A stretch of DNA of 37,576 nucleotides from Nitrosomonas sp. (GTDB taxonomy: Bacteria; Pseudomonadota; Gammaproteobacteria; Burkholderiales; Nitrosomonadaceae): positions 1 through 37,576 of the forward strand of contig JAHBZZ010000028.1 of assembly GCA_019635215.1 (NCBI GenBank), written 5' to 3'. Of the stretch, positions 5,476-26,216 are shown one piece after another. The stretch's first letter is position 1, and every line of letters begins with the position of its first letter. The notes beneath the pieces are model-generated. The model worked only from the letters and a program-made list of their open reading frames with translations, made no database searches and was not told the origin of the DNA. The position numbers and the translations under genes were made by a program.

Positions 5476-5494
5476 TCGGAAATTTAATCATGAA

Positions 5495-6301: not shown

Positions 6302-6421
6302 ATCATTTATCTCGTTTTATCTCATGAATGAGATTCATTATTTTTTCAAATCACTTAAAAAGGCATTTGACGAACGAATAACTTAGTTCCATAAAAAATA
6401 CATTTAGTTCAAGATAATCTG

Positions 6422-8266: not shown

Positions 8267-8301
8267 TCAGTACTTGAAAATGGATTATCGATATATAGAA
8301 A

Positions 8302-9195
8302 CTAGAATTTACGCTTGATAATAAAATCGGTGACCTGACGCAGCCGGATCGCGGCTTCGCCAAATTCATGCAAAACCTGATCCGCATCATATTGCAGTTT
8401 TTCCGCCAACGCGCGCGCTTCGCGAATACCCAGGATACTGACATAGGTTGGTTTGTTATTTTCGGCATCCTTGCCAGCTGTTTTACCCAGTGTTGCTGTC
8501 GAAGCTTCCGCATCAAGTACATCGTCGACAACTTGAAAAGCCAATCCGACACATTTTGCAAAATGATCCAATTTTTCCAGCTGCGCGGCATTCAGAACGT
8601 TACTGCAATGCGCACCGAGCATCACCGCAGCTCTGATCAAGGCACCGGTTTTATGAATATGCATGAATTCGAGTTCGGGCAGTGTTAACATCCTGCCGAC
8701 ATTATCCAGATCAAATGCCTGCCCTCCGGCCATGCCACGTGAACCGGAAGCGCTGGCAAGTTGTTTGATCATCGCTAACTGCGTTTCAGCGTTATCGGAT
8801 AATTTTCTTTCAGCGAGTAATTCAAAAGCCAGCGTTTGCAAGCTGTCTCCGGTCAGAAGCGCGGTTGCCTCATCGAATTCAACATGACAGGTTGGTTTTC
8901 CGCGCCGTAACACATCATTATCCATACAAGGCATGTCATCATGCACCAGTGAATAACCATGGATCAATTCAACAGCCGCGGCGACAACGGTAACACGTGT
9001 CTCGTCCGCCTGACTTAATTCTCCGGCAGCAAAAGCAAGCAGCGGACGGACACGCTTGCCACCGTCAAGAATGGAATAACGCATTGCCTGATGCAAACGG
9101 ACAGGCACACAATCCACCGCTGGCAGCCGTGCATTCAGGAATGTCTCGATAGCAATCTGACGCTGGCTGGCCCAGCTTTGAAAATCAGTGGTCAT
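8302..9195 (-). CDS. ispA: Farnesyl diphosphate synthase (short-chain polyprenyl synthase)
   Basis: 297 residues, as in E. coli IspA. It joins isopentenyl and dimethylallyl/geranyl diphosphates to make farnesyl diphosphate. The first aspartate-rich motif is DDMPCMDND at 86-94, preceded by LIHGYSLVH. The second is DDVLDAEAS in the C-terminal half. DGGKRVRPLL (44-53) binds the isopentenyl diphosphate. The start overlaps the end of xseB by four bases (ATGA), and dxs follows after 35 bases. This is the classical xseB-ispA-dxs arrangement. Confidence 0.97.
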   Translation of the reverse strand: MTTDFQSWASQRQIAIETFLNARLPAVDCVPVRLHQAMRYSILDGGKRVRPLLAFAAGELSQADETRVTVVAAAVELIHGYSLVHDDMPCMDNDVLRRGKPTCHVEFDEATALLTGDSLQTLAFELLAERKLSDNAETQLAMIKQLASASGSRGMAGGQAFDLDNVGRMLTLPELEFMHIHKTGALIRAAVMLGAHCSNVLNAAQLEKLDHFAKCVGLAFQVVDDVLDAEASTATLGKTAGKDAENNKPTYVSILGIREARALAEKLQYDADQVLHEFGEAAIRLRQVTDFIIKRKF

Positions 9196-9449
9196 GAATG
9201 ATCGGATAGGGTGAATTTTTTCAGCATATCGTCCTCAAGAATACGTACCTGCTGTTGCGCATCCTGTAATTGCCCTTGGCAATACTGCAATAATTCAGCG
9301 CCGCGTTTATAGGCCGCCAGCGAAGCCTCGAGCGACATCTGACCAGCCTCCATTGCCGCAACGATATTCTCCAACTCGGTCGATGCCGCCTCAAAACTTT
9401 CCGGCAGATCAGATGGAGGAGGTACAGAATTTTTTGATGCTTTCGCCAT
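9192..9449 (-). CDS. xseB: Exodeoxyribonuclease VII small subunit
   Basis: 85 residues, the normal size. The core LPESFEAASTELENIVAAME then GQMSLEASLAAYKRGAELLQYCQGQL is the XseB signature, a two-helix coiled hairpin that binds the large subunit XseA. Exonuclease VII degrades single-stranded DNA from both ends. It is the first gene of the leftward xseB-ispA-dxs unit and overlaps ispA by four bases. xseA is not in the window. Confidence 0.95.
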   Translation of the reverse strand: MAKASKNSVPPPSDLPESFEAASTELENIVAAMEAGQMSLEASLAAYKRGAELLQYCQGQLQDAQQQVRILEDDMLKKFTLSDHS

Positions 9450-9601
9450 AAAAATGACTACAATGATTCTAAAAAATAGTTATAAAAACAAAAGAAATAT
9501 CCCAATTTCTAGCGATAATGCATCAAGCAATGCACATACCTGATCTGTGGCATTTTATCATGAAAGGTTTATGGCGCGATGTTGCTGCATGAATTATTTG
9601 A

Positions 9602-11299
9602 TTAATACCGCGTATCAGATAAACCTCGTGGATCACTCGCTGTTGTGGCCTTCTGCAATTGCTTATCATAATGAATCAACTGCATGTTCCCCCAGGTACG
9701 CGGCATGGTGCGCACGTCATGGCCTATAGACTCCAATGCACTCACCCATGACGCTCCAAAAGCATCGGGTTCAATTTGCAAAATATCCGGCAAATATTGG
9801 TGGTGGAAACGTGGTCTGGATACTAGCTTCTGCAGATCGGTTTCATGGTTATCGATGTAATCCAGAATAACAAGTAACAGCATACTAATGATACGTGAGC
9901 CACCTGGTGTACCCGCGATTAATATCCCGTTTTCGTTTTCCACAAAAGTCGGTGACATACTCGATAGCGGCCGCTTTCCGGGTGCGATGGCGTTTGCGCG
10001 CGAACCATACAGACCAAAGACATTGGGGATGTGTTCGCCGATTGCAAAATCATCCATTTCATTATTGAGCAATACACCGGTATCGCCCGCAACAAACCCT
10101 GATCCGAAAAAAGTGTTAATCGTCAGTGTTGCCGCAACGCGGTTTCCGGCGTTATCCAGAACCGCAAAGTGCGTGGTTTGAGCCCCTTCTGCCGGTAAAT
10201 TTTGCACTGGCGGCACAGCCTGACTGACGCCCGCTTTATCCGGATTGATGGTTGCCGCCTGTTGGCGTGCGTATGTTTCGCTCACCAGACGATCTGCCGG
10301 AACCGCAACAAAATCACTGTCACCCAACAGTTCCGTGCGATCCTTGTAAACCCGGCGTAGCGTTTCAATGACCAAATGAGTTTTCTGAATCGGTTTTTGT
10401 TTTTCGTCTAAAACTACTTCAAGGATATTCAACGCCTGAGCCAGCGTCAGGCCACCTGCCGAAGGCAATGACGCCGATGTGATTTGTGCATTGCGGTAAC
10501 TGAATTGAACCGGTTTCCTTTCAACGATGCGATAATTTTTCAGATCCTGTTCATGCCATATGCCGCCCGATGCACGCACGGCATGCACAAGTTTCCGTGC
10601 TACCGGGCCTTGATAAAAACCGTTTCCACCGGATTTGGCGATCGCCGCTAATGTTACGGCAAGCTGAGGCTGGCGGAATAATTCGCCCTCGGACAATAGC
10701 GCGCCATCCGGCAAAAAAACAGCCGCCGTATCCGGATACTGCGACAGTTTTTTTTCATGATCCCGCAGCGTCTGGGCAAAACGCCTGTCCACCTTGAAAC
10801 CATCCTGCGCCAGTTTAATTGCAGGTTCCAGATTATCGGCCAGTGTCAGACGGCCATAGCGCGACAAACTGGCAAATGCGGCCGGTGTACCGGGTATGCC
10901 TGCGGCTATCGGTCCATTGAGCGATTTGCCGGGCAGCGGATGACCCTGTTCATCCAGAAACATATCTTTTGACGCTGCGGATGGCGCTGTCTCACGGCTG
11001 TCGATCATCACACTGCGGCCTGTCTTTGCATGGTGCAGCAACCAAAAACCACCTCCGCCCAGGCCAGAAGCGTAAGGTTCCACAACCGCCAGAGCCGCAC
11101 CGACTGCGATGGCCGCGTCAAACGCATTACCGCCTTTTTCCAGAATTCTTTCCCCTACGGCCGTTGCAAGTGGATGCGCCGAAACAACGGTGCCTGAGGT
11201 CGTTGCACCGCCTTGCCCGGGAAACCAAAACAGCGCGACAACGATCACTACGAACCCAAGACATAGCGAATTGATCTTGGCGGCGAAAACTCTGTTCAC
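9602..11299 (-). CDS. ggt: Gamma-glutamyltransferase (periplasmic)
   Basis: 565 residues. An N-terminal hydrophobic segment (about 10-28) followed by GQGGATTSG looks like a signal peptide, so the enzyme is probably periplasmic. It cleaves the gamma-glutamyl bond of glutathione. The proenzyme is cut autocatalytically at the TTHF site: Thr375 would be the new N-terminal nucleophile of the small subunit. Other family features are the large-subunit GGGGFWLLHH (81-90), VMIDSRETAP (97-106, substrate-binding Arg), TINTFFGSGFVAGDTG, NNEMDDFA and GTPGGSRII. It lies 150 bases upstream of xseB on the same strand and probably has its own transcript. Confidence 0.95.
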   Translation of the reverse strand: MNRVFAAKINSLCLGFVVIVVALFWFPGQGGATTSGTVVSAHPLATAVGERILEKGGNAFDAAIAVGAALAVVEPYASGLGGGGFWLLHHAKTGRSVMIDSRETAPSAASKDMFLDEQGHPLPGKSLNGPIAAGIPGTPAAFASLSRYGRLTLADNLEPAIKLAQDGFKVDRRFAQTLRDHEKKLSQYPDTAAVFLPDGALLSEGELFRQPQLAVTLAAIAKSGGNGFYQGPVARKLVHAVRASGGIWHEQDLKNYRIVERKPVQFSYRNAQITSASLPSAGGLTLAQALNILEVVLDEKQKPIQKTHLVIETLRRVYKDRTELLGDSDFVAVPADRLVSETYARQQAATINPDKAGVSQAVPPVQNLPAEGAQTTHFAVLDNAGNRVAATLTINTFFGSGFVAGDTGVLLNNEMDDFAIGEHIPNVFGLYGSRANAIAPGKRPLSSMSPTFVENENGILIAGTPGGSRIISMLLLVILDYIDNHETDLQKLVSRPRFHHQYLPDILQIEPDAFGASWVSALESIGHDVRTMPRTWGNMQLIHYDKQLQKATTASDPRGLSDTRY

Positions 11300-11539
11300 G
11301 ACAATAAGCGACTTAAAATGAAAGGAATTGCACTATTGTAATTTAATACGCTTCGAACTGAACCTAAAAATCCGCCCTGGACTCTATTGATCCATGGCAA
11401 TGACTATGGCAAGATTCAGAGTCAGGGTCTGCGCATGTACGGTTATCTTGCTGTCCTCGCCAAGCGGAAGGACATATCCTGAGACAAGCCGCCATTCCGC
11501 GGCAATTTTTCATTCAATATTTAGAAACAAGAGGTTGCT

Positions 11540-11995
11540 TTGGAAGAATATATCGAACAAATCTCCAAGTATTTTACTAATGTCCCCTTGTGGCCTTTTT
11601 TTCTACTGGGCTTTATTGGCCTTGTTTCTCTGGCTATCGAAGCTGTCAACCGCAAGCGGCGCGACGCTGCGATTAAAAATTTTCGCGCCATGTTTGAGGA
11701 AGACTTGCCGGGCCTGTATCCCAACATTACGCGCTGGCCGGAAAACATCAATGCCTACTTATGCGCCCGCTTGCCGGAAATGCAGCATCATTTTGAAGTA
11801 TTGCGGGTCTTCATTCCGCAAAAACAACTGCGGGAATATAACATGGCCTGGAACAACTATTGCGACTTCTGCCGGGGTATTGTCGTTGAAAATGATGCTG
11901 CCGAAGCTCAACCATCGGCCCACAGTGATGACAATCGAAAACAGGAATTTCATAAACTTATTACCGGTTTACTCGAATTTGCCAAAACCAAGTAA
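11540..11995 (+). CDS. Hypothetical protein with one N-terminal membrane segment
   Basis: 151 residues from a TTG start; GAGG at 11531-11534 gives a usable ribosome binding site. One hydrophobic segment at about residues 16-33 (LWPFFLLGFIGLVSLAIEA) is followed by a basic stretch (NRKRRDA), so the C-terminal domain is probably cytoplasmic. That domain contains FRAMFEEDLPGLYPNI and a Trp/Tyr-rich MAWNNYCDFCRG. I recognise no family. It stands between ggt (divergent) and the phosphatidyltransferase (convergent). Length, ribosome binding site and amino-acid composition suggest a real gene. Confidence 0.65.
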   Translation: MEEYIEQISKYFTNVPLWPFFLLGFIGLVSLAIEAVNRKRRDAAIKNFRAMFEEDLPGLYPNITRWPENINAYLCARLPEMQHHFEVLRVFIPQKQLREYNMAWNNYCDFCRGIVVENDAAEAQPSAHSDDNRKQEFHKLITGLLEFAKTK

Positions 11996-12041
11996 TACTT
12001 CGTAATGCCTTTGTTCACGAAATCGCGTGGCAAGATACGCA

Positions 12042-12590
12042 TCATGACCGATTGGGCTGGTCTTTCATTGCACGGTAAAAATTATTCTTGAAAAACAGAT
12101 AGGTGTAATCAATCGCGGATAGCACACTGAACAGTATTGCCAAAATCAGCAGCCATTGCGGTATGCTCTCCAGTCCAACAAAACACAAGAACACCAAAAA
12201 CTGAAATACTGTCGCGGCTTTCCCAAGCACTCTGGGAACCACATTGAAAAAAGCGCGCCAGTTTTTCTCCCAGGCAATGAGTGATGCGCCGCAAAACACG
12301 GCAATTTCGCGTGCGCCGAACAGCATGAACTGCCACCACGCAATCTCCGTTTCCACAAACATAACCATTGCCACAACAAGCACAAAACACTTATCCGCGA
12401 TCGGATCCAGCAAAGCACCCAGCGGACTACCCCAGTTAAACCAACGGCAAAGCGCACCATCCAAATACTCGGTTGCCAACGCGATAAGTACTATGATCAG
12501 ACGATAATGCTCAGGCGCCAGTGGGAAAACAAAAGCCAGGATCAACCGTAAAACAGTCAGGCAATTCGGCAGTTGTCTCAACATGATCAT
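12042..12590 (-). CDS. CDP-alcohol phosphatidyltransferase family protein
   Basis: 182 residues with several membrane helices, as in PgsA/PssA relatives. These enzymes transfer a phosphatidyl group from CDP-diacylglycerol to an alcohol. The catalytic motif is usually D-x2-DG-x2-AR-x8-G-x3-D-x3-D. Here it reads E41-YL-DG-AL-CR, then G58, D62 and D66: spacing is perfect, but the first Asp is Glu and the Ala before Arg is Cys. The N terminus RQLPNCLTVLRLILAF is typical of PgsA. Phosphatidylglycerophosphate synthase is possible, but the substituted motif leaves the alcohol substrate open. The ATG at 12584 (MLRQLPN) is an equally good start. Confidence 0.85.
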   Translation of the reverse strand: MIMLRQLPNCLTVLRLILAFVFPLAPEHYRLIIVLIALATEYLDGALCRWFNWGSPLGALLDPIADKCFVLVVAMVMFVETEIAWWQFMLFGAREIAVFCGASLIAWEKNWRAFFNVVPRVLGKAATVFQFLVFLCFVGLESIPQWLLILAILFSVLSAIDYTYLFFKNNFYRAMKDQPNRS

Positions 12591-12881
12591 AAGAAAAACA
12601 CTTTAATTGTCAGCAGCGGCATCATCAAAGACCGCAAGATCATGCATTTATCTCCTTGAATACATTTATTTTATTCAGTTTACGTAAAAAAACCCATCAT
12701 CACATCAATCTCCAAATAAATAACCATATGAAGCAAGTCTAAATCGCCCAATGCAAATGACAAATGCAACCCCGCATATCAGTCGCTACCATGACTAAAA
12801 ATCAAAATCCAGCCATACCCACTGATCGGAAATACGATTAAAATTATGATTCCATATTTTCTCAACTACAAATATCCAAGT

Positions 12882-13112
12882 ATGCAGCAATTTGACCTGG
12901 AACTCGATGCACGCGGACTAGTTTGTCCGCTCCCTATTCTGCGTACCAAGCAATCACTGGCAAGCATGACGCATGGTCAGGTATTGAAAATTGTCGCCAC
13001 CGACCCAGGCGCCGTAATTGATTTTCAGGTTTTTGCCGAGCAAACCGGCAATGCATTATTGTCGATGTCCGAAACCGATCTGGAATTCATTTTTTTTCTC
13101 AGAAAACGGTAA
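12882..13112 (+). CDS. TusA/SirA-like sulfurtransferase
   Basis: About 76 residues from the ATG at 12882 (MQQFDLELDARGLVCPLPIL). The CPxP motif with Cys15 is the hallmark of TusA-family sulphur carriers, which accept persulphide sulphur from IscS and pass it on for tRNA thiolation, molybdenum cofactor or sulphur-oxidation pathways. The frame also has an ATG at 12846 that would add 12 residues. I prefer 12882 because family members usually begin a few residues before the first strand; neither start has a good ribosome binding site. The C terminus (LEFIFFLRKR) is complete. It is convergent with the accessory island and marks its left border. Confidence 0.85.
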   Translation: MQQFDLELDARGLVCPLPILRTKQSLASMTHGQVLKIVATDPGAVIDFQVFAEQTGNALLSMSETDLEFIFFLRKR

Positions 13113-13133
13113 CACCTTGATCAAATCGGTATG

Positions 13134-15983
13134 CTATTCGCCATCTTCAAATTCCGCATTGCTGAATTTGAGCGTATTACAATTCTCTTTGATGGTGCGT
13201 TGCAATCCTTCGTCAAAACCATCCCTGCTTCTGGCTTCAATCTCAACAGAGATCGTCACATCGACACCGTATTTCTCACTAAATTGCTGAACGACCTCAT
13301 CCATAATGGTGGCAAAATCCAATTTGGCTTTGACGGGATTCAGTGAAACGGTACCGTAAAACTGTTTCCTGGCAGCAGTTAATGCGGATATTTCCGTGTT
13401 TCCGGGTTGATCCAGGGTAGACACGGATGTCACCGTAGTGCTCGTTCCATCCGGTAGTGTTGTAGCGCTGCCACCAGCGCCGGTAACATTCCCGGCTTCC
13501 GTTGTCTGCTGAATTGATTTCTGCAAACACTCACGGTATGTAACAGCCGTTTCCCGATCAATCAATAGCGACGACTCATCCAATATACAACCAGCGTGAC
13601 AACCAAAGCTGAATCCAAGATAGCGTTCCCCTTCCTTGCCCGAAGCAAATGCAAAGTAGTCCTCACACTCAACACCCTGCACAATGGCATTACGAAAGAC
13701 AGTATCATTGACAAGTCGCGGCAAATACACATAGTGACAGCAATCCTGCCAGACTTTAACCGCATTCATTTCATTAACACCATCTTTAAAATACCATTGA
13801 TTCAGCGTGTTACGCAAATGAATGGGCGACCACTCATAAATCAGCCATTCCTCTTCACGCAATTTGTCTTCAATGGCCTGAATTAAATTGGATGCCGCCG
13901 GTGAAACTGAAACCGCTTCCCAGGTCAGTGTCGGTTTTCCTTTGATAAATTCTTCTGTCGGCGCAATCAGCCATTTATAGGTTTCCCGGACTAACTGTGA
14001 CAATAATTGTTCCGCGTTGTCACGATTGCGCTTAGCTTGATTTAAATGCGCCATATCCTGATTCAATAAGCCATTCTCAATATCCGCCGCGATGGATTGC
14101 CATGCCAGGAAAATACGCCCTTGCTCTCTTAAGCGATTCACAACATCATAATCCGCAGCGAGAAAAATCAGGCGATTCTGCTTTTGTCGTGGTTGCTCAC
14201 CGCGATTGCGCAAAATTTCTTCGGCGGCGGCAAATGCCGTATTAGCTTCACTGTGGCTATATGCTGCATTCGTCGGCAGTACCACCAGCCGTGGCCCCGC
14301 ACCATAATCATCAGGAATGTCCACCGAGGACGTAAATACATGAATACCGCTAAAGTGATGATTGCGGCCAAAAACACGGCTCACCCTTTCTTTTAACAAA
14401 GGCAACAATTCATCCCGGTCACTGATATTTTGCTTGCGGCTTTCCATTTCACGGCGAAGATTCGGTTTGGTATCCAGCCAGTATCTGTCCTGCTCAGAGA
14501 AAAGATAATGCAATTGGTCGCGCAACCGTTTCAACACATCTTCAAAAATACCCAATGTTTGTTCCGGTTGTACTGCGCCCAGCAGAATACGCTCGGTTTG
14601 AATACCTCGAATGGTTTGTTCCTTTATTGATGGCGCACTGCCCAGAAAAATCGTTCGTGTTGTGCGGCGGGCAGCCTGTACACTACCAAACAACGTATGA
14701 TGACCGTCAATCTCATAAGGCGCCGACCGTGGGCCATCCACTTCTCGCTCGATGACGGGCTCCCAACCCTGTGGCAGATAATGAATACTTTTGTTACGCA
14801 CATTACCGTCTTCGAGCGGCAATGATCCGGGCATTATCAATGCATCACGGTTATCGGAATTCCAAAGGCGATGAATGACGATAGCCATATATTGCAGCAC
14901 GCCACGGGTGCGCTGGAATTTATCCAGTGTAGACCAGTCTTCATAAAGCCTGTCGAAAATCTCCGGATGAATCGGGTACGAGCGGCACAGTCGTTCAAAA
15001 TACTCATTGGATTGCGTTTCAACTGGAAACTTAGCCGCGTGTTGCCGGTAAAAATCGGAAAACTGCCGGCTAATACCCTCAACCTGTGCACGCTCTCCGG
15101 GCGTCTCGAACAAACGGCGGCGCACGATTTCAAATGCTTCCTCAGTCCCTACCGGCTTCCAGACCGACTCCACCCGGCCAAAATATTTTTCCAGCGAATT
15201 CAGTGCGCGCTGGCCGGTGGTGCCGCCGATTTCCAGATCGGATTCCGGTAATGATGCGAGTAAAATCGCATTCGGTACAGCTTTCAAGGCCTCTGTCAGC
15301 GCCTGTATAAAGCTGATATTGGAGTCAAAAGTTCCCGCCCTATACTGCTTACCCCATTCCAGTTGCCGAATGAATGCAACTAATTCATCGATCAGAATGA
15401 CGCACGGTGCTGCCCGCTCAATCAGTTGCGTCAGAATTTCCTTGCCGGGTGACGTGCCATCCAAGTCGCTGTCGCGTATCATCTGATAGCCTTCTTCGCG
15501 CAGCAGTTGCCATGCGAGCTCACCCCAGAGTGTATTGACGGTAATCGCGCCATATTGCCGCGGCTGACTGGGCGAGAGCTTGATGCCATCAATGACTGCA
15601 ACACGGGCCTGCGGTAAACTTTGAATACCCGCGTCATCCAGTACCGGTGGAATACCGGTCAGTTTTTCCGTTCCCACCTGACGAGAAGCGAGATGATAGA
15701 CAGCCAGAAGCGTATGCGTTTTACCGCCGCCAAAAGCGGTTTGCAGTTGAATCACCGGATCGCCGCCCTGATTTGCCAGACGTTGCGCGACGGATATCAG
15801 CAACAATCTCATTCCTTCGGTGATATAGGTTCTGGAAAAAAACTTTTCCGCGTTTTGATATTCGTCCGTAGCCGTACCGCTGGCCACCTGACTGATGTCT
15901 GCTGCGAATTCAGATTGCTTGAACGTGCCCTCCAGTACATCCTTATGCGGAATAGCAATCTCTCTCCAGGGTTTTAAACTCAT
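13134..15983 (-). CDS. DUF499 domain ATPase (BrxC/PglY-like) of a putative defence system
   Basis: 949 residues. P-loop at 84-90 (FGGGKTH) and a Walker B segment at about 194-200 (CVILIDELV), matching the DUF499 (COG1483) AAA-like ATPases. Members act with DNA methylases in BREX-like and other modification-based defence systems; the precise biochemical role is not settled. The C-terminal part has a Gly/Ser/Thr-rich linker ([20 protein letters not shown]) before a final domain of about 90 residues with [17 protein letters not shown]. It is the last gene of the five-gene operon, starting 9 bases after the methylase stop, and a ribosome binding site (AGGAGT) lies in that gap. No frameshift seen. 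Confidence 0.9.
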
Positions 15984-15992
15984 CGTTGACTC

Positions 15993-18974
15993 CTAAAAGT
16001 CCAAATCAAGTATGTCTTGTGTGCCGCGATGGCCGATGTCATGTGATGCCGCGACAATGGCATGCCACGAACCGATCAGCTCATTGTAAGCGCGTGCTTC
16101 TTCAGCCCATTTCTTGCGTTCGCACAGGGTGTAGAGATGATAGGCAAGCTGGCGGATGGCTTCGCCTTTTTCCGGCATTTTAGCAAGCAACTCACCGGCT
16201 GCCGATTCGCCCTGATGGTTGAGCCGCCGGATCATCTGGTGACACGCCTCCCATACGGGCGTGCGATCATCACGGGTGGGATCCCAGTCTGATGCGTACT
16301 CACCCCATTTCAGCAGGCGCACTTTGCCGCCACCGGATTCCACCACGCCGGCATTGCGCACGCCGTCGACGCTAGTGCCCTTGGCGCGGGTCAATGTATC
16401 CGCTTCCCCAAACGGCCCCGCGCCCCAGCCATATTGATCAAACCAGCTCGCGCAGAACTGGGTATCGGCGTCAAAGCTGCCGGATTCCGGGCTGAGGTAT
16501 TCGGTGATCGCACGATTGATGAGTATCAGCGCATCATGCACGCGCATGCGCGAACCGTCCTGATTGAGTACTGCTTCGTATTTGGAGAAAATCGCCATAC
16601 CCGGGCCAATCGCCGCCTGCGCCAGATCAACCGGCGCTATCGGTGTCTGCCCTGTTTCGCCGCCGATCATGGTTTCCAGCGCCTCGGGCATCGCCTCGCG
16701 CAATTCACGCTGAAAATCACGGCGGGAAACATTCTGAGTATTGGGATCGCGTTTGCGACACACAAGTACAATCGATGAAGCCAGGGCGTTAGTACCAGAG
16801 CCAATCATCCTATTGGCCATTTCAGTCCGCATGGGCCAGGTACCATCAATAGAGAAACCAGCCTGGATTACCGCCTCCAGAAAGGTTTCCCAGCCAGTAC
16901 TGGTGGTGCTGCCTTCCCTGGTTTCCGCCTGCTTGAAGGCGTAATAGATAGTAACCGGAAAGGCTGGGTGCGCCTGTCCGGCCAGATTCCGGATGGCGCG
17001 GGTCATGCCGTCCATAAAGAAAGCTTCGGCCATCTCCTTGCTGCCATGTCGATACGGCGTGGCCACCAGCTCTTCGGCCTTGGGCACCGCCAACGTGGCA
17101 AACAAATCCGGATAGATACCACGTAACGAACGCCGCATCCAGACATAGAAAAAATCGGACAGATCGGCATAACCAATATTGTCGTAGTAAGGTGGGTCGG
17201 TTGAAATGACTTTATTTCGGCTAAGTGATTGGGTAGCTGCATCTTGTTGGTTAACTACTCCATTCGTCTTTAAGTAAATTTTTTCAATGACACGTTTGAC
17301 CCAAGAATTTGCACCAAGCCAATCCCCAGTAGATCCACTAAATGGGTTTATTTCAGTATAGTCCCAAACCATAGGTATTGCTTGTCGCCCAAATACATGG
17401 GTTACGTATTCTCCATGTGGTGCCCATGTGCATAAGTTTGACCAATAATCAGAGCAGCGATCAAGACTCATTGTAAAATAAATCGCCAATGCATCCCCAT
17501 AAGCCGACGCACCGATGCCGCCAGCATCCAATCCCAATCCATCATCGGTCATACCGACGGTTTTGGCATCGGCAATCACTTTCTCGCGGGCTTCCTGCAC
17601 CAGATCGGAGAAAGTGGTCAGCGCGACCAATTGGCGGGGAGTGAAGAGGTCACCATATTTTGTAAGCCCATAAAGCTGTGTTCGAATATCTCTTGGATTA
17701 TGATTGATTTCTGTATCGGGCTTCCAGGCCGGTTTTATAGAATTGGCTAGTAACTCTACTTCATCTGTTGGAGGAAGATAAACTCGACCAGCGTTTCCCT
17801 CTGCCACAATGGCCATCAATCTTTGTTTGAATGTTCCTGATTGACCTTGACTTCTTATTTCCGCAACTGGAATCGGTGATCCTGAAATCAGACATTGAAA
17901 ATTCCCGCCACGCCCTACTTTTGTTCCATTTTCTGCTTCTAAAGGTGGCATTCCAACTTTGACATTAAATCGATAGCTGTCGCCTTCCACTACCGGCTCT
18001 ACATAGGCCTCCTTTCCTTTTTTACTCGACAGCACAAAACTGGAAACCAGCGGCACATCGACATGACTAAACGCCGGATTAGGGCTTTTGACTGTTCTAG
18101 CCCACAACCAAGCGATTATCGTCAATTCCTGCCCCACATACGGACGCAGGTCTTCCCTGGGTGCATCACCGGGAGCGCCGGCATCTTGCTGACTCTCTTC
18201 TGCCGATGGGACGCCGGCGCTCCTGGCGACACCCTCAACCATTTCCGAGGTGATTTTTATTTTTGGATACAAGTGACCGATACGCTTGAGTGCCTCTTCC
18301 CGCATCCAATGACCATACCGACGCACATCTTCCGCCAGTCCCGTAGCACCAGGCCAGTCTTCCATCAAATGGCCGGAGTCTTTGCCTTGTGGCAGCGGAC
18401 CAATGGGTTTGCGACCGGCGAATTTAGGCGGGGTTTCGATCATCGCCTTGTTGATCATCACCGCAACCGGATTCAGGTCACTCGCATACGCCTCCAGCCC
18501 AAGACGCTGCGCTTCCAGTGGTATTGAACCCCCGCCCGCGAACGGATCATGAAATGCAGGCAGTTTTTCCGGGTCGAACAACTCCTTGGCTTGCGGATGG
18601 TTGCGGTTCAAATGGCAAGTCTCCCGCCAGCTTTCCCAAATCGCCGCACGTGCTCGATTCAGTACTTCCTCGTTATTGGTATTTTCCCATTTCACCAGAT
18701 CGCGGATGATCTGGAACAGTGCTTCTCGCTTGATCTCGGCTTCTTTTTTATTAACACCGAATCCAATTTCGCGCTGATAACCGGGGTCGTTAACCAGTTG
18801 CGCGAACAATACCGCCCGCGCCGCAGCCAAAGGACGCCTCGCCCACCACAGGTGCAGCGTGCTCGGGTGGCCGTGGCGGATCGATTTCTCCCGTGCGGCG
18901 GCGGCATTGATATCGTCCAGCGGCAAGGCGACTTCAATCAGTTTTTTTGGGGTTCTTATTGGGTATTTAGTCAT
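15993..18974 (-). CDS. DUF1156 adenine-type DNA methyltransferase
   Basis: 993 residues. The N-terminal DUF1156 region is [19 protein letters not shown] followed by [20 protein letters not shown]. The S-adenosylmethionine motif [13 protein letters not shown] is at 143-155, and the catalytic [20 protein letters not shown] starts at about 593, giving the amino-methyltransferase (N6-adenine or N4-cytosine) signature in COG1743-type order. Related enzymes (PglXI) modify host DNA in type 3 BREX; that link is family knowledge and the activity here is inferred. The start overlaps the HNH gene by four bases (ATGA). A GC-rich inverted repeat is inserted in frame at residues 251-272, between the catalytic motifs. 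The target sequence cannot be predicted. Confidence 0.93.
18172..18223. repeat. GC-rich inverted repeat inside the methylase gene
   Basis: Arms GGAGCGCCGGC (18172-18182) and GCCGGCGCTCC (18213-18223) are perfect 11-base inverted copies around a 30-base loop. On the coding strand this yields residues 251-272, with a low-complexity [20 protein letters not shown] segment, unlike the surrounding protein. It resembles REP-like or other dispersed palindromes that can insert into genes in frame. Dispersal elsewhere in the genome cannot be tested in this window. Confidence 0.6.
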
Positions 18975-19651
18975 TTCTGTAAAAAATGCTTGATGCAGGT
19001 GGCGTAAGGCTCGTAGCGGGTGTCATTGATTTCTCCAGCTAGATACGTCTGGCGGTCTGCTGGCTGCCAGGTCGCCAAGTCATCGAGGTCGGCAACGATT
19101 CTTTCTCTGTAGACAGCCAAGGCTCTGGCACGGGCACCGGTCAATGCACGGTCATTGAGACCAAAAACACGGATCGTCTCGGCGGCTCGGTGAGCGTCGT
19201 CTGCATTCAACCCACTGCGTACACGTACTTCACCGGAAGAATGAAAGTACAGGTAGTGCGTGGGGTCATGCTCATCGGGCTTGATGAGGTGATCAGGGTT
19301 GTAAGGCTGCGCACCATTGCGGTCTTTGTAATGACCGCAATGCGTATTCGCGTCACAGGCCAAAAAAAGATTTGGCCAGGCAAACGTTAGCTCAGGGTGG
19401 TGCGCAGGATTTTTTCGGCGGAAATGTTCAATATGGCCTTCGTGGTAGATGCCACCTTCACAGTAGGCACAGCGCAGGCCATATTCATTGGACTCTGGCG
19501 TCGTCACACCTGGAATGCCCTGCATCTGTACCAGTGCGGCACGTAGCAGGTGCTTGCACTCTGCGTCAAGATCATCCCAGTTCTGAATTTGATAGTCGTA
19601 TGCGGAAAGACAGGCCGGGGGCGCTGTACATGCACGATTAAGCTTGTGCAT
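18971..19651 (-). CDS. ptuB: PtuB-like HNH endonuclease (TIGR02646 type)
   Basis: 226 residues. The core contains a CxxC pair (CAYCEGG, 61-64), HIEHFRRK (73-80, the catalytic His), [19 protein letters not shown] (Asn94, Cys99, His104, Cys105, Lys109). This is the HNH/zinc arrangement of the TIGR02646 family, which includes the PtuB effector of Septu and of retron Ec78. PtuB is a nuclease activated in a complex with the PtuA ATPase. Here it begins one base into the stop codon of the ATPase gene (TAATG overlap), in the PtuA-PtuB order, and overlaps the methylase start by four bases. No reverse transcriptase is nearby, so this is not a retron. The symbol is by homology class only. Confidence 0.88.
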
Positions 19652-20982
19652 CAGTTCTGCCCCTCTGTCTTGGGGGACTGACGAAGTTTGAAGCTTTGAA
19701 AACGGATGAGCCGATCGGCATCCCGTATTACTGAGTGACCAGAGCCATAAACGGCGATCAATTTTTCACGCAACGCTCTACCTTCGGGTGTGTCATGAAG
19801 GCCGTCTTCAATGGCTGCGATGTAGTCGGCAATCAGTTGCGCTTCATGAACTGGCGGTATGGGGTTTACTCCCATGACATCGTTTAGTGCCACAGAGCTT
19901 TCCATCCCCATGATTTCCTGATCGGGCGATTGCGCCTGCCACTGATCTTCGCTGTCCTTGAACACGACTCTGATGTTGTCTCGCTTTACGGTAGAAAGCA
20001 CTTGCGGGCTGTGACTACTAACGATGAATTGCAGTCTGGGAAAGGCGTTGCGCAGACTTTGAATCACCTGTTGTTGCCATGTCGGGTGCAGATGCAGATC
20101 CACTTCGTCAATCAGTACAACGCCTGTACTTTCGCGCGGCGCGCGTTCTCTCAGATGACCATTGAGACGCGCGCAACGCAGGGCCAAATCGGCCACCAGG
20201 GAGATCATGGCGCGTACGCCGTCGCTGAGCATACTGATGGGCAGTGCGCCATGATCGGCATGCACCATGGCTAGTTCCTCGAACATCAGGCTGTAGTGAA
20301 AATGACTCCAGCCTTCGCTTACCATGACGGTATCGACGGCCTCAGCGATTCCTTGCAGGCGAGATTGCAAATTAGAATGTTCATAACCGGGTTGACTGCG
20401 CTGCTGAACTGCCGCCAGCGAGGCTTTTTTCATCCATGCCTGCAACTGCACAAAGCTGGACAAGGAGGACAAACAGTCTTTATAGCCTGCCGTGCGGCTT
20501 TCAGTGAGGATCGATTTAGTGCTGATGTTACTATGGCTGACCCATAGTCGCTTGGAACTGTAGTAGCGCACGACTGGCAAAGTCACATCTGCTTTCTGGC
20601 GTAACTCTGCTTGCAGCGATTTTCCCCAATTGGCCAAAGGAGCCGCCTCTTTTTTGGTAGTACGGCCTTTAGCACTATGCAAGGTACGCTGCCATTTAAT
20701 GTCTGGAGTACTCAGCGTGGCATCGATGACTACCGGAAAATTTTGTTGGTTTTCGAATCCATCCCCCACCACGCCATAACGGGCATCGGTACGCCGGATG
20801 TGCTCAGACTTTCCTTCGTCAAATGCACCTACAAAGGGGCCGAGGGCGGCAGCAACAGCTTCCAGAATTGTAGTTTTACCTTGACCATTACGAGCGGCGA
20901 GCACAGTCAGTTCGGGATGGAAGTCTATTTCAAAATTTTCAAAGCGGCGATAGTTGCGTAGTTTGAGTTGTGAGAAGTTCAT
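19651..20982 (-). CDS. ptuA: PtuA-like AAA/ABC-type ATPase
   Basis: 443 residues, similar in size to Septu PtuA. It begins [20 protein letters not shown], the N terminus of the RecF/OLD-like AAA_21/AAA_23 ATPases. Walker A is at 32-38 (NGQGKTT). [19 protein letters not shown] (252-270) is the ABC signature region, and [14 protein letters not shown] (287-300) is Walker B with the catalytic Glu, followed by [10 protein letters not shown] (H-loop). In Septu the ATPase assembles with PtuB and controls its nuclease. No Toprim domain is visible, so it is not an OLD nuclease. It overlaps the helicase stop by four bases and the HNH start by one, which implies coupled translation. Confidence 0.88.
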
Positions 20983-23900
20983 GTTTTTTCTCCTGGTAAC
21001 TCCGCTCTGATCAGTAACTGACCCAGATCGAGATTCTTGCTGGTTTCCGCCCAGTCCGGCTCCTGCGTGAAGGGCTGGCGCACGTAGAACGGGCCTTCGT
21101 GCCTGTCCCCGTCCACCAGCACGATAGCGAGGATGAATTTGTCCGCCTGGTTCAGGCCGTAGAGGATTTCATTGCGGCTGACCGTGATGGTACTTTGTCC
21201 TTTGACGCGGCCTTTGACCTCGATATGCCGATCGGGTTTAATGGAGCCGTCCGGGTTGGCCGGGGGTCGTGCTGTAATGTCCCATCCGCATTTTTCGCCG
21301 GAGACATCTTTTACCGCGTGTCCCAAACGCCTTTCGACTGCCATGACGGCATTCATCGCAATCTGTTCGATACGAGAGCGCATTTCGGCATCGGCGCAAA
21401 AGTTATTTTCCCCTTTGTATTGCGATAACAGTCCCTGTGGGATGACCAACGCGCCGCCAATCACCACCGGCGTACTGGAAACAACATTTTTCATCGCTTC
21501 CAGTTCGCGTTTACGTTGCGCCAGTCTTTCGGTGAGTTCATCGACACGGCGGCGCGCATTCTCCGGCTGGATGCGGGGTTGTTTCCCGGCAGCGACATCT
21601 TCACTGAGTTTAAGGTAGCGGTCTGACCAGTGGTTGATTTCCTTGACCAGCCGCTCATGAACCGCAGTCAGTATTTTGTCTGCCTGACGCTCCCGCCGGG
21701 CTTTTACTTCCTGATAGTGTTCGGGCACCAAATACCGGGAAGCGTGGGTGAGCGCCAGTTTTTCCAGATCATTATTGATCCAGGGCGCATTAAGAATAGA
21801 TTGCATCAGTTTGAGGTCGTATGCATCAATAGGTTGCAGATCGAGGTGCGGCGCCCAACCCGCATGGTTGGCATTGCCCTGCTGATCGATTTCGACAAAC
21901 TGTAAGCGGCGGGAAGCGACGCGTTGCTGCATACGATGATGCGTATCTCCACTTTCACGCACGCTGTGATCCACCATGAACAGCATTCTGGGTTCCAGTC
22001 CATCATCATTCGGATCGACCAACACAGCACCCTGTTTGAGTTTGCCGCGATGAGCGGACAGGATGAGATCGGTTGTGGCATACATCAACGGATGGCCGGG
22101 ATGTATCAGGTCGGCCATCGGCTTTCCATGCATTCTGGCCAGATTTTTCTCAAAGCAGATGCGTTCGTATTTCTTCAGTACCGGTGTGCGTGTTTCACCG
22201 ATAATCCGGTCACGCTCGCGAATGGCAGCGGGAACATGGCGCACTTCAAAGCGCCCGGATTCACGGGCACGCATTTCACCGCTGAGATTCTGAAAGGCCT
22301 CGGTAAAAAAAGCGCGAATGAAATAGGGTTGCAGCTTGCGGGCTTCCGCCTTTTCCATCTCTTCCTTGACGGCATAGAGATCCTCAAGATTCATATGCTG
22401 CTCGACCAGCGCATTGCGCCGCAGAATCGCTTTGAGGTGTTCAGTATCCAGCGCGCTGTCGATGATTTGACTGAGTCTGGCTTGTACTTCAGGAGACTCA
22501 CCATAGCGAATAGCTTCGACCAGCAATTCCTTGAGCGATATATTTTCAAAGGCTTCGCCGAGAATATCGAATACTTTTCCGCCAAGCGCCTGTTTTTCTA
22601 CTTCGAGTTTGTCGAACAAGCGCTGAAAAACATCACCTTCACGCGTTTCCCTGGCGATCAGATTCCACAGATGACAGACTTCAGTCTGGCCGATACGGTG
22701 GATGCGACCAAAACGTTGCTCCAGGCGATTGGGATTCCACGGCAGGTCGTAGTTGACCATGAGATTGGCATTTTGTAGGTTTACGCCTTCGCCAGCGGCA
22801 TCGGTCGCTACCAGCACTTGCACATCGGGATTGTTACGGAATTCTTCCTGCGCCTTGCGCCGGTCATCGCGGTTGACACCGCCATGGATGGTGATGACCG
22901 CTTCCGGCCTGCCCAGCATACCGCCGATACGGCCAACCAGATAATTGAGGGTATCCCTATGTTCGGTGAAAATAATCAGTTTGCGGCGATTGCCGCCTGC
23001 TGTGAACATTTCCGGACGATCCTGCAACAAGTGAGAAAGCTCTTCCCATTTTCTGTCATTACCGGATTGCACAATACCGAGAGCCTGATTTTCCAGGTCT
23101 TTCAGAATGCAGATTTCAGCTTCCAATTCATGAACAGTCTCAGCCGCCGTGGCTTGATCGACCACTTGATCGGCATAGTTTTCATATTCTTCTGCACTGA
23201 GTTCTTCATCAAGTTCATCGAAGTTGTCCGGTAGATCAATCTGTTTCTTGACGGTATACGTGCCCAGGGTTTCGGCGACGTTATTGTTTACGTTGTGACC
23301 CCGCGCAATAAGCTGCGTTTCCTTGAGTCGGGACTCAAGCCGTTTACGTCGGCGTTTAAGCGATTGATAAATGGCCTCGGGACTGGATGCCAGCCTACGC
23401 TGGAGCAGCGTCAATGCAAAACCGACTGTTCCTTTACGTTTGCTGCCAAGCTGATCGGCGCGGTTCATTTCGTTACGCACATAGTCGGTAACAGCGGCAT
23501 AAAGTGCCGACTCGGCATCCGACAGTTCGTAGTTGGCGCTATAGGCTCTACGTTCCGGAAACAACGGGGTGCCATCGAATTTGAGCAACTCTTCCTTGAC
23601 CATGCGCCGCATCATGTCGGAAACATCTACTTTATGCGCGCCTTCGCGAAATTTGCCGTAGAACCGGTCGCTATCCAGCAGGGACAGCCAGATTTGAAAA
23701 TCCTCTTCCTTGCCATTATGTGGCGTGGCGGTCATCAATAAAAAGTGGCGCGTTATGGAACCCAGCAATTCCCCCAATTGGAATCGCCTCGTTTTTTTGA
23801 TGTCGCCAGACCAGTAGGAAGCGGACATTTTGTGCGCTTCGTCAACAATGATCAGATCCCATTCGGTCAGCTTGAGCTTTTCCTGATATTCATCGTTACG

Positions 23901-24530
23901 GGAAAGTTGATCCAGTCGGCAGATGAGCTGGTTTTGCTCGTCGAAGTAATTACCGGAAATACATTGTTCCTGTTTCTCGCGGCTGAAAATTTCAAAATGA
24001 ACGTCAAACTTTTCCAGTAATTCATCCTGCCATTGTTCGGTGAGAGAACCGGGAGAGATAATCAGAATACGTTTGGCATCGGCGCGCATCAGCAACTCGC
24101 GGATCAGTAACCCGGCCATTATCGTTTTACCGGCTCCAGGGTCATCCGCCAAGACAAACCGAAGCGGCTGACGTGGCAGCATGGCCTCGTAAACCGCTGA
24201 GATTTGGTGCGGCAATGGTTCTACATTCGATGTATGCACAGCCATCATCGGATCGAACAGTGCTGCCTGAGAAATACGATAAGCTTCCAGGCTCAGCTTG
24301 AAATCCGCACCAGGCGCATCTAAAGCCCACGGACGGCCTACCTGAGCAGATTCAAGACGCGCTTCGTCGGAACGAAACAACATTTGCTCGTTGAGACGAC
24401 CCTGATTGTCTTTGTAATAGACGGTTAACGCATCGTCGCCAACGGATTCCACCTGCACCACGCGCACAATCTCACCCGCGTGGAGACCGAGAATCTGTGC
24501 ATCCTTTTTGATGTCTTCGAGTTTGAGCAT
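20979..24530 (-). CDS. SNF2-type helicase with C-terminal DUF3883 domain
   Basis: 1183 residues. The superfamily 2 helicase core has Walker [11 protein letters not shown] (129-138), DEAHKM (230-235), [10 protein letters not shown] (motif III), [14 protein letters not shown] (start of the C-terminal lobe), [13 protein letters not shown] and [17 protein letters not shown] (motifs V-VI). These place it among COG0553-type enzymes such as BrxHII and DrmD. A long helical region follows. The C-terminal DUF3883 segment has GWDI ... HIEVKGR near 1104-1108, resembling a PD-(D/E)xK nuclease-like fold; activity is not shown. It is the first gene of the tight operon, about 40 bases from a MITE. No Shine-Dalgarno sequence is evident before the ATG. 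Confidence 0.92.
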
Positions 24531-24570
24531 CGCGCTACTTTAATAGTATTAATAGAGAAGTATTTTATTC

Positions 24571-24711
24571 GAGACCTTTGCACGGCTACTACGCGGCACG
24601 ATAATTGCGTTAAAAATTTGCGAAAAATGCTCATTTACCCCGTGCAAACTCCGCTTTTTCGCAAATTTTTGCCTTATTCTCGTACCGCTCATGACACCGT
24701 GCAAAGGTCTC
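24571..24711. mobile_element. MITE, 141 bases, with IS5-type terminal repeats
   Basis: Perfect 15-base terminal inverted repeats GAGACCTTTGCACGG (24571-24585) and CCGTGCAAAGGTCTC (24697-24711). A 5-base direct repeat TATTC flanks both ends (24566-24570 and 24712-24716), as expected of a target duplication. Inside, AAAAATTTGCGAAAAA (24612-24627) and its exact complement (24655-24670) form a second inverted repeat, so the element can fold into a long hairpin. No coding frame. The same 15-base terminus opens the IS5-family element at 37349, its probable source of transposase. Confidence 0.85.
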
Positions 24712-24719
24712 TATTCATT

Positions 24720-26216
24720 TCAAACTCGGCCCTGCATAAACCGATCACGCAGCCACAGCTCGAGCCGATGTGTCGCCGTCACGTCGTCACGGTTATAATT
24801 CAGTAATTCCGATTTCAGCCGTTGTTTTTCAGCCGGATCGGTTTCAGCAAGAAAACGGTTAAACTGCACAATGGACCATTGAGAGCCGGATGCCGTATTC
24901 TCCCACTGAAAATTAACCAATTCAGGGTGCTTACAGATATCCTTCAGGCCGTAGCCCTGTAGCGGCAGCACCAGATTGTCCTGTACTGCCTTTTGCAGAT
25001 CAAACATCGGGCCGTGGTCGTTGCCCTGCGTTTTGCCGAGCAGCCACTGCACGGAGGCATGTTCAGTCATGTTATAGCGCTGCGCATAGTGTTTTATCAC
25101 CGCTTTTTCGTGATTGGAATAATGCGCCAGGATTACCGGTGAAAAAGTGATGCGATACTGCTCAATCTTTTCCAGAAAAGCCAGCCAGCCATCGTAGTCT
25201 GCGCCTTCATGATCAGTCCAGACATAATCGAAATCATGATGCGTGTGAGGCGGCACCAGCATCCCCCAGAGATAGACATGCCGCTCACGCGTCAAGGTAA
25301 GCGGGTTATCCTCGATATCAAAGTGTATCCAGTTACCTGTCGGTAATTCAATATTATTCAGTTGAAACACTTGATTCTGCAGATACGCCTGTGCCTGCAC
25401 CACGGCGCGCTGTTTGCGTTTTATGCCGGATAAATGGGGCACATCCGGTAAGGTTCCGGGATCCTGTGCTGCGAGTTGCGATATGGTCCGGATGCCCGCT
25501 GTGGCCAGATGTTCCGCTGAGCGGCCATGCACACCGTGCAACAGGGAAATATCCTCCTGATTGACGAAATGCGGCCGGCAGTGCTCAAAATAAGGACAAA
25601 TGCGGCACTTGCTGTGACTATAACGGACATCCGGTTGCACCAGTTGTTCACGCAATTGCCGCATATCCGCCAGAAACGCATCGACCAGTGCATCGGTTTC
25701 ACTGCCGATAACAGCTGTACGATTGCCACCCAGAAACACCATCACCGGCAGATCATTCTCTAACAATCTGCGATAAAGCCCCAGTTGTATCTTCAGTGCC
25801 CGTTTATTTTCATTTTGCGTTAACTTGGCATCCGCAGATTGATACTGACCGCTTTCATGGCGGATCAGAAAATCCGGAAAACCTACCAATCCGGCCTCTG
25901 GATTCATCAAATGCGCCTGATAGATGACAGCCACTCCCTGTTGCATGAGTGCCGTTGTGTGTTCGAATGAATCAGCATGATGTACATCATACTTGTCCTG
26001 TAGCTGCTTCAATATGCGTTGTTCATGCTCCAGTCCGGCATCAAACAAAAGGCGGGTAAATGCATCCACTTCAAAGTCAGATGTCCGATGCATGTTCAGC
26101 CATGCCCGGCGCCTGCAGGATGCCCAGGACGCAGCGTAGCTTGGCTTGATCAGGCGAATATCATGCTTGTCATATTCATTATCAATTGAAACTGTGCCTG
26201 GCGAATGTATGGTCAT
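24720..26216 (-). CDS. TM0106-family RecB-like nuclease with RNase H-like domain
   Basis: 498 residues. The N-terminal half is a RecB/Cas4-type PD-(D/E)xK nuclease: GFPDFL (Asp115), SADAKL (Asp129, Lys131) and QLGLY (Gln144, Tyr148). Cys34 plus the C-x2-C-x5-C triplet at 204, 207 and 213 (CRICPYFEHC) would bind a 4Fe-4S cluster, as in Cas4/AddB-like enzymes. The C-terminal half has an RNase H/DEDD-like exonuclease signature: WIHFDIEDNP (Asp-x-Glu) and YNRDDVTATHRLELWL. It lies upstream of the helicase on the same strand but is separated by a MITE 8 bases after its stop, and is flanked upstream by a second MITE. Membership in the defence operon is uncertain. Confidence 0.85.
   Translation of the reverse strand: MTIHSPGTVSIDNEYDKHDIRLIKPSYAASWASCRRRAWLNMHRTSDFEVDAFTRLLFDAGLEHEQRILKQLQDKYDVHHADSFEHTTALMQQGVAVIYQAHLMNPEAGLVGFPDFLIRHESGQYQSADAKLTQNENKRALKIQLGLYRRLLENDLPVMVFLGGNRTAVIGSETDALVDAFLADMRQLREQLVQPDVRYSHSKCRICPYFEHCRPHFVNQEDISLLHGVHGRSAEHLATAGIRTISQLAAQDPGTLPDVPHLSGIKRKQRAVVQAQAYLQNQVFQLNNIELPTGNWIHFDIEDNPLTLTRERHVYLWGMLVPPHTHHDFDYVWTDHEGADYDGWLAFLEKIEQYRITFSPVILAHYSNHEKAVIKHYAQRYNMTEHASVQWLLGKTQGNDHGPMFDLQKAVQDNLVLPLQGYGLKDICKHPELVNFQWENTASGSQWSIVQFNRFLAETDPAEKQRLKSELLNYNRDDVTATHRLELWLRDRFMQGRV

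What the first reader, a model, noticed from the sequence alone, without database searches (positions are those of the whole stretch)
13134..24530. Five-gene hybrid modification/defence operon: helicase, PtuA, PtuB, DUF1156 methylase, DUF499 ATPase
All five genes are leftward and fused by 4, 1 and 4-base overlaps, then a 9-base gap, so they are probably one transcript. Helicase (COG0553 type), DUF1156 methylase and DUF499 ATPase are classes used in type 3 BREX and related modification-based defence. The BREX hallmark PglZ phosphatase and BrxA/BrxF are absent, and an ATPase/HNH pair of the Septu class is inserted instead. I infer a system in which the methylase marks self DNA, DUF499 and the helicase scan or translocate, and PtuAB supplies the nuclease. 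DUF499-DUF1156-helicase clusters are known from defence-island surveys; the particular five-gene fusion is the part that may be undescribed.
Basis: partly seen in the sequence, partly recalled or inferred. Interest (0 to 1): 0.88.

Follow-up and report, generated by a model that had tools for sequence, protein, structure and literature searches.

The report
Septu pair nested in Hma operon
Five neighbouring bacterial genes turn out to be one known virus-defence system (Septu) sitting inside another known one (Hma), an arrangement already in print; a small extra is that the inner system looks stitched together from two different parents.

Summary
In detail: five leftward genes (13134-24530) overlap by 4, 1 and 4 bases, then a 9-base gap. 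By profile they are HmaA, PtuA, PtuB, HmaB and HmaC: a complete Hma system (helicase, methylase, ATPase; also called Type-1 BREX-related) with a Septu type I pair between hmaA and hmaB. This is described: the 2021 paper that named Hma saw it often with Septu, and a 2025 paper cites "Septu in Hma systems" as its example of embedding. The same five genes lie on an annotated Rhizobium plasmid. PtuAB behaves as cargo: it occurs in 18 of 67 Hma loci, scattered over the HmaB tree, and its divergence hardly tracks that of Hma. HmaA carries its own conserved nuclease motif. One point I did not find in print: in this PtuA lineage the C-terminal tail and PtuB travel together and are swapped under the ATPase head, with a seam just after the H-loop. 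The window's PtuA is itself such a mosaic.

The parts
20979..24530 (-). hmaA: SNF2 helicase with C-terminal NOV_C (PD-(D/E)XK-type) nuclease domain
   Evidence: PADLOC PDLC00659 HmaA 2202.7 bits over residues 1-1179; motifs [22 protein letters not shown] conserved in 58-59 of 60 aligned HmaA, one A in the first being S in two
21093..21371 (-). HmaA residues 1054-1146, NOV_C domain, predicted nuclease
   Evidence: PF13020 78.7 bits; D1084 and E1104 in 59 of 60, K1106 in 60 of 60 aligned HmaA. That this domain is a PD-(D/E)XK nuclease is taken from PMC12839542 (section 29) and recall, not tested
19651..20982 (-). ptuA: OLD/ABC-type ATPase of Septu type I
   Evidence: PDLC00310 543.5 bits; PDB chain 8ee4_A PtuA E 2.4e-76
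19993..20982 (-). PtuA head (residues 1-330), nearest to L026, L134, L019 (57, 55, 55%)
19654..19962 (-). PtuA tail (residues 341-443), nearest to L077 (52%), a different locus from the head's nearest
18971..19651 (-). ptuB: HNH nuclease of Septu; with the PtuA tail it forms the presumed swap unit
   Evidence: PDLC00358 229.6 bits, TIGR02646 91 bits; nearest L077, 55-56%
15993..18974 (-). hmaB: DUF1156 amino-methyltransferase
   Evidence: PDLC00661 1749.5 bits; in 60 aligned HmaB, DPFAGGG is invariant except A146 (59 of 60) and DPPYYDN except D598 (58 of 60)
13134..15983 (-). hmaC: DUF499 AAA+ ATPase; the HmaC profile fits from residue 1, so no N-terminal HEPN extension
   Evidence: PDLC00662 1580.4 bits, residues 1-946 on profile 1-940 of 941

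Best explanation
A complete Hma (Type-1 BREX-related) defence operon, hmaA-hmaB-hmaC, into which a complete Septu type I pair, ptuA-ptuB, has been inserted between hmaA and hmaB so that both are probably co-transcribed. Hma most likely works like a restriction-modification system: HmaB methylates adenine at host sites, HmaC recognises or scans DNA, and HmaA translocates along and cuts unmarked invader DNA with its own C-terminal nuclease (inferred from families). PtuAB is an independent second-line effector: PtuA assembles with the HNH nuclease PtuB, and on infection PtuB cuts nucleic acid (DNA or a host tRNA in characterised Septu and retron-Septu systems) and stops phage growth. The two share a place and probably a promoter, not a mechanism. 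Within the pair, the PtuA tail and PtuB form one exchangeable effector unit on the ATPase head. Shown here: gene content, order, motifs, scattered and nearly uncorrelated inheritance, mosaic PtuA. Inferred: every biochemical step.
For: Near full-length profile matches for all five. Among 67 Hma loci with A, B and C in order (61 whole, 6 cut in A; 13 of 80 incomplete and set aside), a PtuA-like gene lies in the A|B gap in 18 and in the B|C gap in 0; those 18 and the window all match PADLOC PtuA models (19 of 19), and 16 of the 18 have a clustered PtuB (17 of 17 with the window match PtuB models). Other loci hold other named cargo (HEC-09, HEC-08, AbiL in A|B; HEC-02, HEC-01, HEC-06, PDC-M61 in B|C; HEC-05 in both; one representative of each cluster scanned). 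Septu label on the HmaB tree: 18 changes for 19 rows, at least 13 forced by starred branches, shuffled mean 16.7. Correlations of pairwise distances: Hma-Hma r 0.55-0.81 and PtuA-PtuB 0.58, each with 0 of 2000 permutations as high; Hma-Ptu r -0.07 to 0.09. The Hma of same-genus genome G013 carries HEC-09 and HEC-05 instead. Literature.
Against: No expression, methylation or phage data exist for this genome. Without the broken locus L085, HmaA and PtuA show a weak correlation (r 0.18, 63 of 2000 permutations as high), as linked neighbours might. Septu sits only in A|B, and its 1- to 4-base overlaps could mean translational coupling and some functional dependence. The one experimental study of HmaA is known to me only as a citation in PMC12839542. 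Payne 2021 calls HmaB an m5C methyltransferase, against the adenine call used here.
Confidence: 0.87

Rival explanations
1. One integrated five-protein machine: methylase marks self, DUF499 and helicase scan, PtuAB is the nuclease.
For: Tight overlaps of all five genes; the same five-gene order recurs, also on a plasmid.
Against: 22 of 67 Hma loci have under 200 bases between A and B, and 27 have more but no Septu there (26 of these 27 hold an ORF of 90 aa or more); HmaA has its own conserved nuclease motif; little co-divergence of Hma and Ptu; 30 of 32 PtuA loci (L134-L166 without the window's own L140) show no Hma gene within the 1.5 kb held on each side, a few of them being cut by contig ends.
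Confidence: 0.05
2. PtuAB is a guard of Hma: it fires only when a phage inhibits the Hma core (as PARIS is thought to do near BREX), so the nesting has functional meaning without physical integration.
For: Septu sits in A|B in 18 of 67 and in B|C in 0 of 67, which is more orderly than random cargo; PMC12839542 proposes that nuclease modules linked to OLD-ABC ATPases are backup effectors in BREX and related loci (passages and section 35 part 1).
Against: No direct evidence; most PtuA of this family found in genomes were not beside Hma, and unrelated cargo uses the same gap.
Confidence: 0.25
3. A degenerate or partial BREX type 3.
For: Homologous helicase, methylase and ATPase (BrxHI/BrxHII profile 320.8 bits on the helicase; PMC12839542).
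Against: No PglZ match in the whole genome. In 14 Hma genomes, own included, 5 have a PglZ match at E 0.001, 2 of them over the cut-off, and none near Hma: on another contig (G569, G366, G355) or about 0.66 and 0.94 Mb away (G853, G491). HmaC matches DUF499 and no other Pfam family at E 0.001.
Confidence: 0.02

Closest known systems
Hma system (Payne et al. 2021, PMC8565338) = Type-1 BR system (PMC12839542)
   Same: All three core genes in the order A, B, C; C-terminal nuclease-type domain on the helicase; no PglZ
   Different: Has the Septu insert; HmaC lacks the optional HEPN domain
Septu type I (PtuAB)
   Same: ATPase plus HNH pair with no reverse transcriptase gene between them; PDB relatives 8ee4 (PtuA) and 22bv (PtuB)
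   Different: Nested in Hma; PtuA head and tail have different nearest relatives
Hma embedded candidates (HEC, PADLOC; Payne et al. 2024 preprint, seen only as cited)
   Same: A defence module inserted between hma genes
   Different: Here the insert is the known Septu, not a new candidate
BREX type 3
   Same: Homologous helicase, methylase and ATPase
   Different: No PglZ; DUF499 rather than DUF6079, which PMC12839542 gives as the BrxC family

Membership tests
Hma / Type-1 BR | HmaA, HmaB and HmaC together | tested here: met
   2202.7, 1749.5, 1580.4 bits over nearly the whole profiles
Hma / Type-1 BR | C-terminal active PD-(D/E)XK nuclease on the helicase | tested here: met
   NOV_C hit and conserved D, E, K; sequence only, fold and activity not tested
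Hma / Type-1 BR | Phage defence dependent on the genes | not testable with these tools
   needs plating assays
Septu type I | PtuA ATPase plus PtuB HNH nuclease, adjacent | tested here: met
   PDLC00310 543.5 bits, PDLC00358 229.6 bits, 1-base overlap
Septu type I | No reverse transcriptase in the pair's operon (which would make it Septu II / retron I-A) | tested here: met
   hmaA, ptuA, ptuB and hmaB overlap, leaving no room for one; the rest of the genome was not searched for one
BREX type 3 | PglZ in the locus | tested here: not met
   0 PF08665 matches at E 0.001 in the genome
BREX type 3 | BrxA and BrxF | not tested
   ten window proteins scanned against PADLOC showed no such hit in the rows listed; the genome was not searched for them
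DISARM | DrmA, DrmB and DrmC with a DrmD or DrmMI | tested here: not met
   only the helicase resembles DrmD and, less, DrmA (388.8 and 235 bits against 2202.7 for HmaA; below the NCBIfam cut-off, 381.9 against 610); no DrmB or DrmC in the rows listed for the five genes; the genome was not searched

The most novel reading that the evidence does not exclude
In the PtuA lineage that inhabits Hma operons, the PtuA C-terminal tail and PtuB form one cassette that is repeatedly replaced under a conserved ATPase head, with the recombination seam just downstream of the H-loop codons (THSPQVLST). Hma operons would then be sites of effector shuffling at two levels: whole modules between hma genes, and half-modules within Septu. 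The tail would be the docking part that decides which HNH nuclease is mounted.
Probability: 0.55. Interest if true: 0.5.

Novelty: new member of a known kind. Interest (0 to 1): 0.3.

Why it matters
The five-gene locus itself is an ordinary example of one defence system embedded in another, and knowing that stops it being mistaken for a new hybrid machine. The tests here add an argument that embedded Septu is cargo, inherited largely independently of Hma. If the head/tail swap holds, it points to the part of PtuA that mounts PtuB, which could be checked on solved PtuA-PtuB structures, and shows how such a system changes its effector while keeping its sensor or motor.

Tried and rejected
Integrated five-protein machine: rejected. 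BREX membership: rejected on PglZ. DISARM: rejected on the weaker helicase score and missing partners. Defence hotspot at this site: not supported; two close relatives (G002, G037) have a lactate-utilisation cluster and permease between the same flanks, and PADLOC found nothing in the five of its proteins scanned. tRNA as integration site: none in the window. Foreign base composition: 1.5-kb blocks inside the operon are at 47-55% GC against 40-52% outside, not decisive. Phage carriage: no phage record holds HmaB over 80% of its length; 4 Sulfolobus virus records match about a third of it. Four IMG/VR contigs encode HmaB, one of them with nested Septu (L169). A larger independent sample of nested Septu was sought and gave two rows not held before (L169, L195); L171 and L185 are the same loci as L134 and L138, L198 the same as L169.

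L086, one of the 15 loci without cargo, has a tblastn match to HmaB stretched over 5 kb, perhaps a second copy. Nested and free PtuA sets come from different sources. Only 5 of 55 free rows have a head within distance 0.6 of a nested head, and one of these (L139) is itself one side of a swapped pair, so the swap may belong to this PtuA lineage and not to nesting as such. Nested head-tail and head-PtuB correlations are low but not nil (r 0.15 and 0.14; 40 and 38 of 1000 permutations as high). The trees are quick ones without bootstrap. Rows left out of the head/tail tests: L033 (PtuA lacks the tail), L064 (no PtuB row), 7 of 32 whole-genome PtuA loci without a recognised PtuB. Of 51 IMG/VR PtuA loci 32 entered the free set: the others had no recognised PtuA-PtuB pair, were truncated (L213, L223, L233), repeats (L198) or near-identical (L217, L230). 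L191-L194 repeat held loci. The PtuB of L169 is a weak match (55.9 bits). L047 is the same locus as L013/G013.

Papers: PMC8565338 abstract and passages; PMC12839542 passages, section 29 and section 35 part 1; PMC12255303, PMC11411939, PMC10855318, PMC13096335, PMC11980606 and PMC12948488 passages only. Payne et al. 2024 (preprint), Li et al. 2024 (not held) and the Liu et al. HmaA paper (not found) were not read. The head/tail swap was looked for in print only, as listings, in a library that lacks most preprints and subscription papers.

Full report
What is there. Overlaps are 4, 1 and 4 bases, then a 9-base gap. PADLOC profiles name them without ambiguity: HmaA 2202.7 bits, PtuA 543.5, PtuB 229.6, HmaB 1749.5, HmaC 1580.4. 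Pfam and NCBIfam agree on the classes. The host appears to be a Nitrosomonas: same-genus genome G013 carries its Hma on a contig of 32,865 bases that matches CASDLT010000011.1, an uncultured Nitrosomonas, in length and position of hmaB.

It is known. Payne et al. [quoted passage not shown] PMC12839542 (passages and sections) calls the same thing Type-1 BREX-related, says that nucleases including HNH may lie near or within the locus, and reports HNH nucleases paired with OLD-ABC ATPases in BREX and related loci. PMC10855318 lists 'HEC (Hma embedded candidates)'. [quoted passage not shown] Septu in Hma systems)'. A public record, Rhizobium rhizogenes plasmid pC6.5e, shows the same five genes in the same order, equally tightly packed.

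Is PtuAB a part of Hma or a passenger? A scan of GTDB genomes with an HmaB alignment returned the best 80 loci. In 67 of them A, B and C lie in order (61 whole, 6 cut in A; 13 incomplete). A PtuA-like gene sits in the A|B gap in 18 of 67 and in the B|C gap in 0 of 67. Twenty-two of 67 have under 200 bases between A and B, and 15 of 67 have room for cargo in neither gap. Other cargo clusters, one representative each identified, are HEC-09, HEC-08 and AbiL (A|B), HEC-02, HEC-01, HEC-06 and PDC-M61 (B|C) and HEC-05 (both). In draws not chosen by closeness of the gene, HmaB passes 1e-150 in 14 of 369 genomes of the class and 14 of 398 of the phylum, own genome included each time. Twenty loci from those draws were fetched; 15 show both an hmaA and an hmaB (one hmaA cut), and 2 of the 15 have nested Septu (L171, L185).

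On a tree of 68 HmaB (67 loci and the window), the Septu label (19 rows) needs 18 changes, at least 13 of them forced by starred branches; shuffled labels need 16.7 on average, and 458 of 500 shuffles were as low. So Septu is no more clustered than chance. Among the Septu-bearing loci (16 to 19 rows a test), HmaA, HmaB and HmaC distances correlate with each other (r 0.55, 0.67, 0.81) and PtuA with PtuB (0.58), each with 0 of 2000 permutations as high; all six Hma-Ptu comparisons lie between -0.07 and 0.09. One row, L085, has broken hmaA and hmaC frames; without it the Hma genes give 0.71 to 0.86, PtuA-PtuB 0.57, and the Hma-Ptu values -0.03 to 0.18. The highest, HmaA with PtuA, was reached in 63 of 2000 permutations, so a weak link between these neighbours is not excluded. 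Thirty of 32 PtuA loci from whole-genome searches show no Hma gene within the 1.5 kb held on each side, some of them cut by contig ends; four of those were checked over several kilobases on either side and have none.

How it probably works. HmaB has amino-methyltransferase motifs DPFAGGG and DPPYYDN, nearly invariant in 60 sequences. HmaA keeps its helicase motifs and, in its C-terminal NOV_C domain, D1084 and E1104 (59 of 60) and K1106 (60 of 60), the residues expected of a PD-(D/E)XK nuclease. So Hma need not rely on PtuB to cut. HmaC has no HEPN extension. Septu in one E. coli strain needs both the ATPase and the HNH motif and cleaves tRNA-Tyr (PMC13096335, passages); a review gives a PtuA:PtuB 6:2 complex and phage DNA or single-stranded DNA as targets (PMC12948488, passages). 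I read the locus as two defences on one transcript: a restriction-modification-like core and a second-line effector. None of the biochemistry was tested.

A mosaic PtuA. The window's PtuA head (residues 1-330) is nearest to L026 (57%), L134 and L019 (55% each), while its tail (341-443) and PtuB are nearest to L077 (52% and 55%). The pattern is general in the nested set. In 21 nested pairs, head (1-340) and tail distances hardly correlate (r 0.15), nor head and PtuB (0.14), but tail and PtuB do (0.91). In 55 free-standing pairs the values are 0.72, 0.74 and 0.81; the lowest head-tail value in 500 free subsets of 21 was 0.41. At matched head distance (0.30-0.50 and 0.50-0.60), PtuB distance exceeds 0.75 in 4 of 9 and 45 of 72 nested pairs and in 0 of 26 and 0 of 44 free pairs. 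Nearest rows agree accordingly: by tail and by PtuB in 13 of 21 nested, by head and by PtuB in 3 of 21; in the free set 32 and 28 of 55. Three pairs whose heads are sisters in the tree (L026/L134, L085/L138, L061/L139) keep 53-94% identity per 30-residue block up to about residue 330 and 14-40% after it, right behind the THSPQVLST motif, with PtuB at 22-23%. L139 is free-standing. A fourth pair, L055/L169, has heads at 76% but PtuB of different classes. For L026 and L134 (=L171), HmaA before and HmaB after the pair stay similar (HmaB first block 78 of 93), so the swap is confined to the PtuA tail and PtuB. Faster evolution of the tail does not explain this: in the three sister pairs each member's tail (47-83%) and PtuB (54-78%) are much closer to a row with another head. 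I found no account of it in the listings, which cover only part of the literature. The free set is mostly of other PtuA lineages, so the cause may be lineage rather than nesting.

Surroundings. In close relatives G002 and G037 the same flanking genes (a TusA-like gene on one side, a TM0106-family nuclease and dnaX on the other) enclose a lactate-utilisation cluster and permease instead. Similarity to the window stops at 13112 and resumes at about 24735, so the Hma operon fills nearly the whole interval. At E 1e-100, HmaB relatives are also on 56 of 72,556 plasmid records.

Verdict. The residue of interest is the head/tail shuffling of PtuA.

Noticed in passing
window 19651-20982 with 18971-19651; compare L026/L134, L085/L138, L061/L139, L055/L169: PtuA is a mosaic: ATPase head and C-terminal tail have different nearest relatives, and the tail goes with PtuB; the seam lies just after the H-loop.
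   Followed up: partly
window 13112-24735 versus L128 2513-7122 and L129 9345-13973: In two close relatives the same flanks enclose a lactate-utilisation cluster (LUD, LutB_C, CCG domains) and a lactate permease where the window has Hma-Septu.
   Followed up: partly
window 24720-26216: Gene for a TM0106-family RecB-like nuclease with an RNase H-type domain, 189 bases upstream of hmaA on the same strand; present in 44 of 61 same-genus genomes, own included, and within about 2 kb of dnaX in the five relatives looked at, so not part of Hma.
   Followed up: partly
L013 (same-genus genome G013) 4404-16223: The other Nitrosomonas Hma carries different cargo: HEC-09 (NYN domain) between A and B, HEC-05 (GmrSD-like) between B and C.
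   Followed up: yes
L169 (IMGVR_UViG_3300044948_000910): A contig filed as viral holds a complete Hma operon with nested Septu whose PtuB is of another class.
   Followed up: partly
L085 (Candidatus Accumulibacter phosphatis): The hmaA and hmaC stretches hold many stops in one frame (20 and 7) while hmaB and ptuA read open: a decaying Hma or assembly errors.
   Followed up: no
L036 14557-19506, L083 12753-15761: Large B|C inserts encoding proteins of 837, 809 and 1002 aa were not scanned or identified.
   Followed up: no
literature: Payne 2021 calls HmaB an m5C methyltransferase, while the PADLOC profile and PMC12839542 call it an adenine methylase; the DPPYYDN motif fits an amino-methyltransferase.
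   Followed up: no
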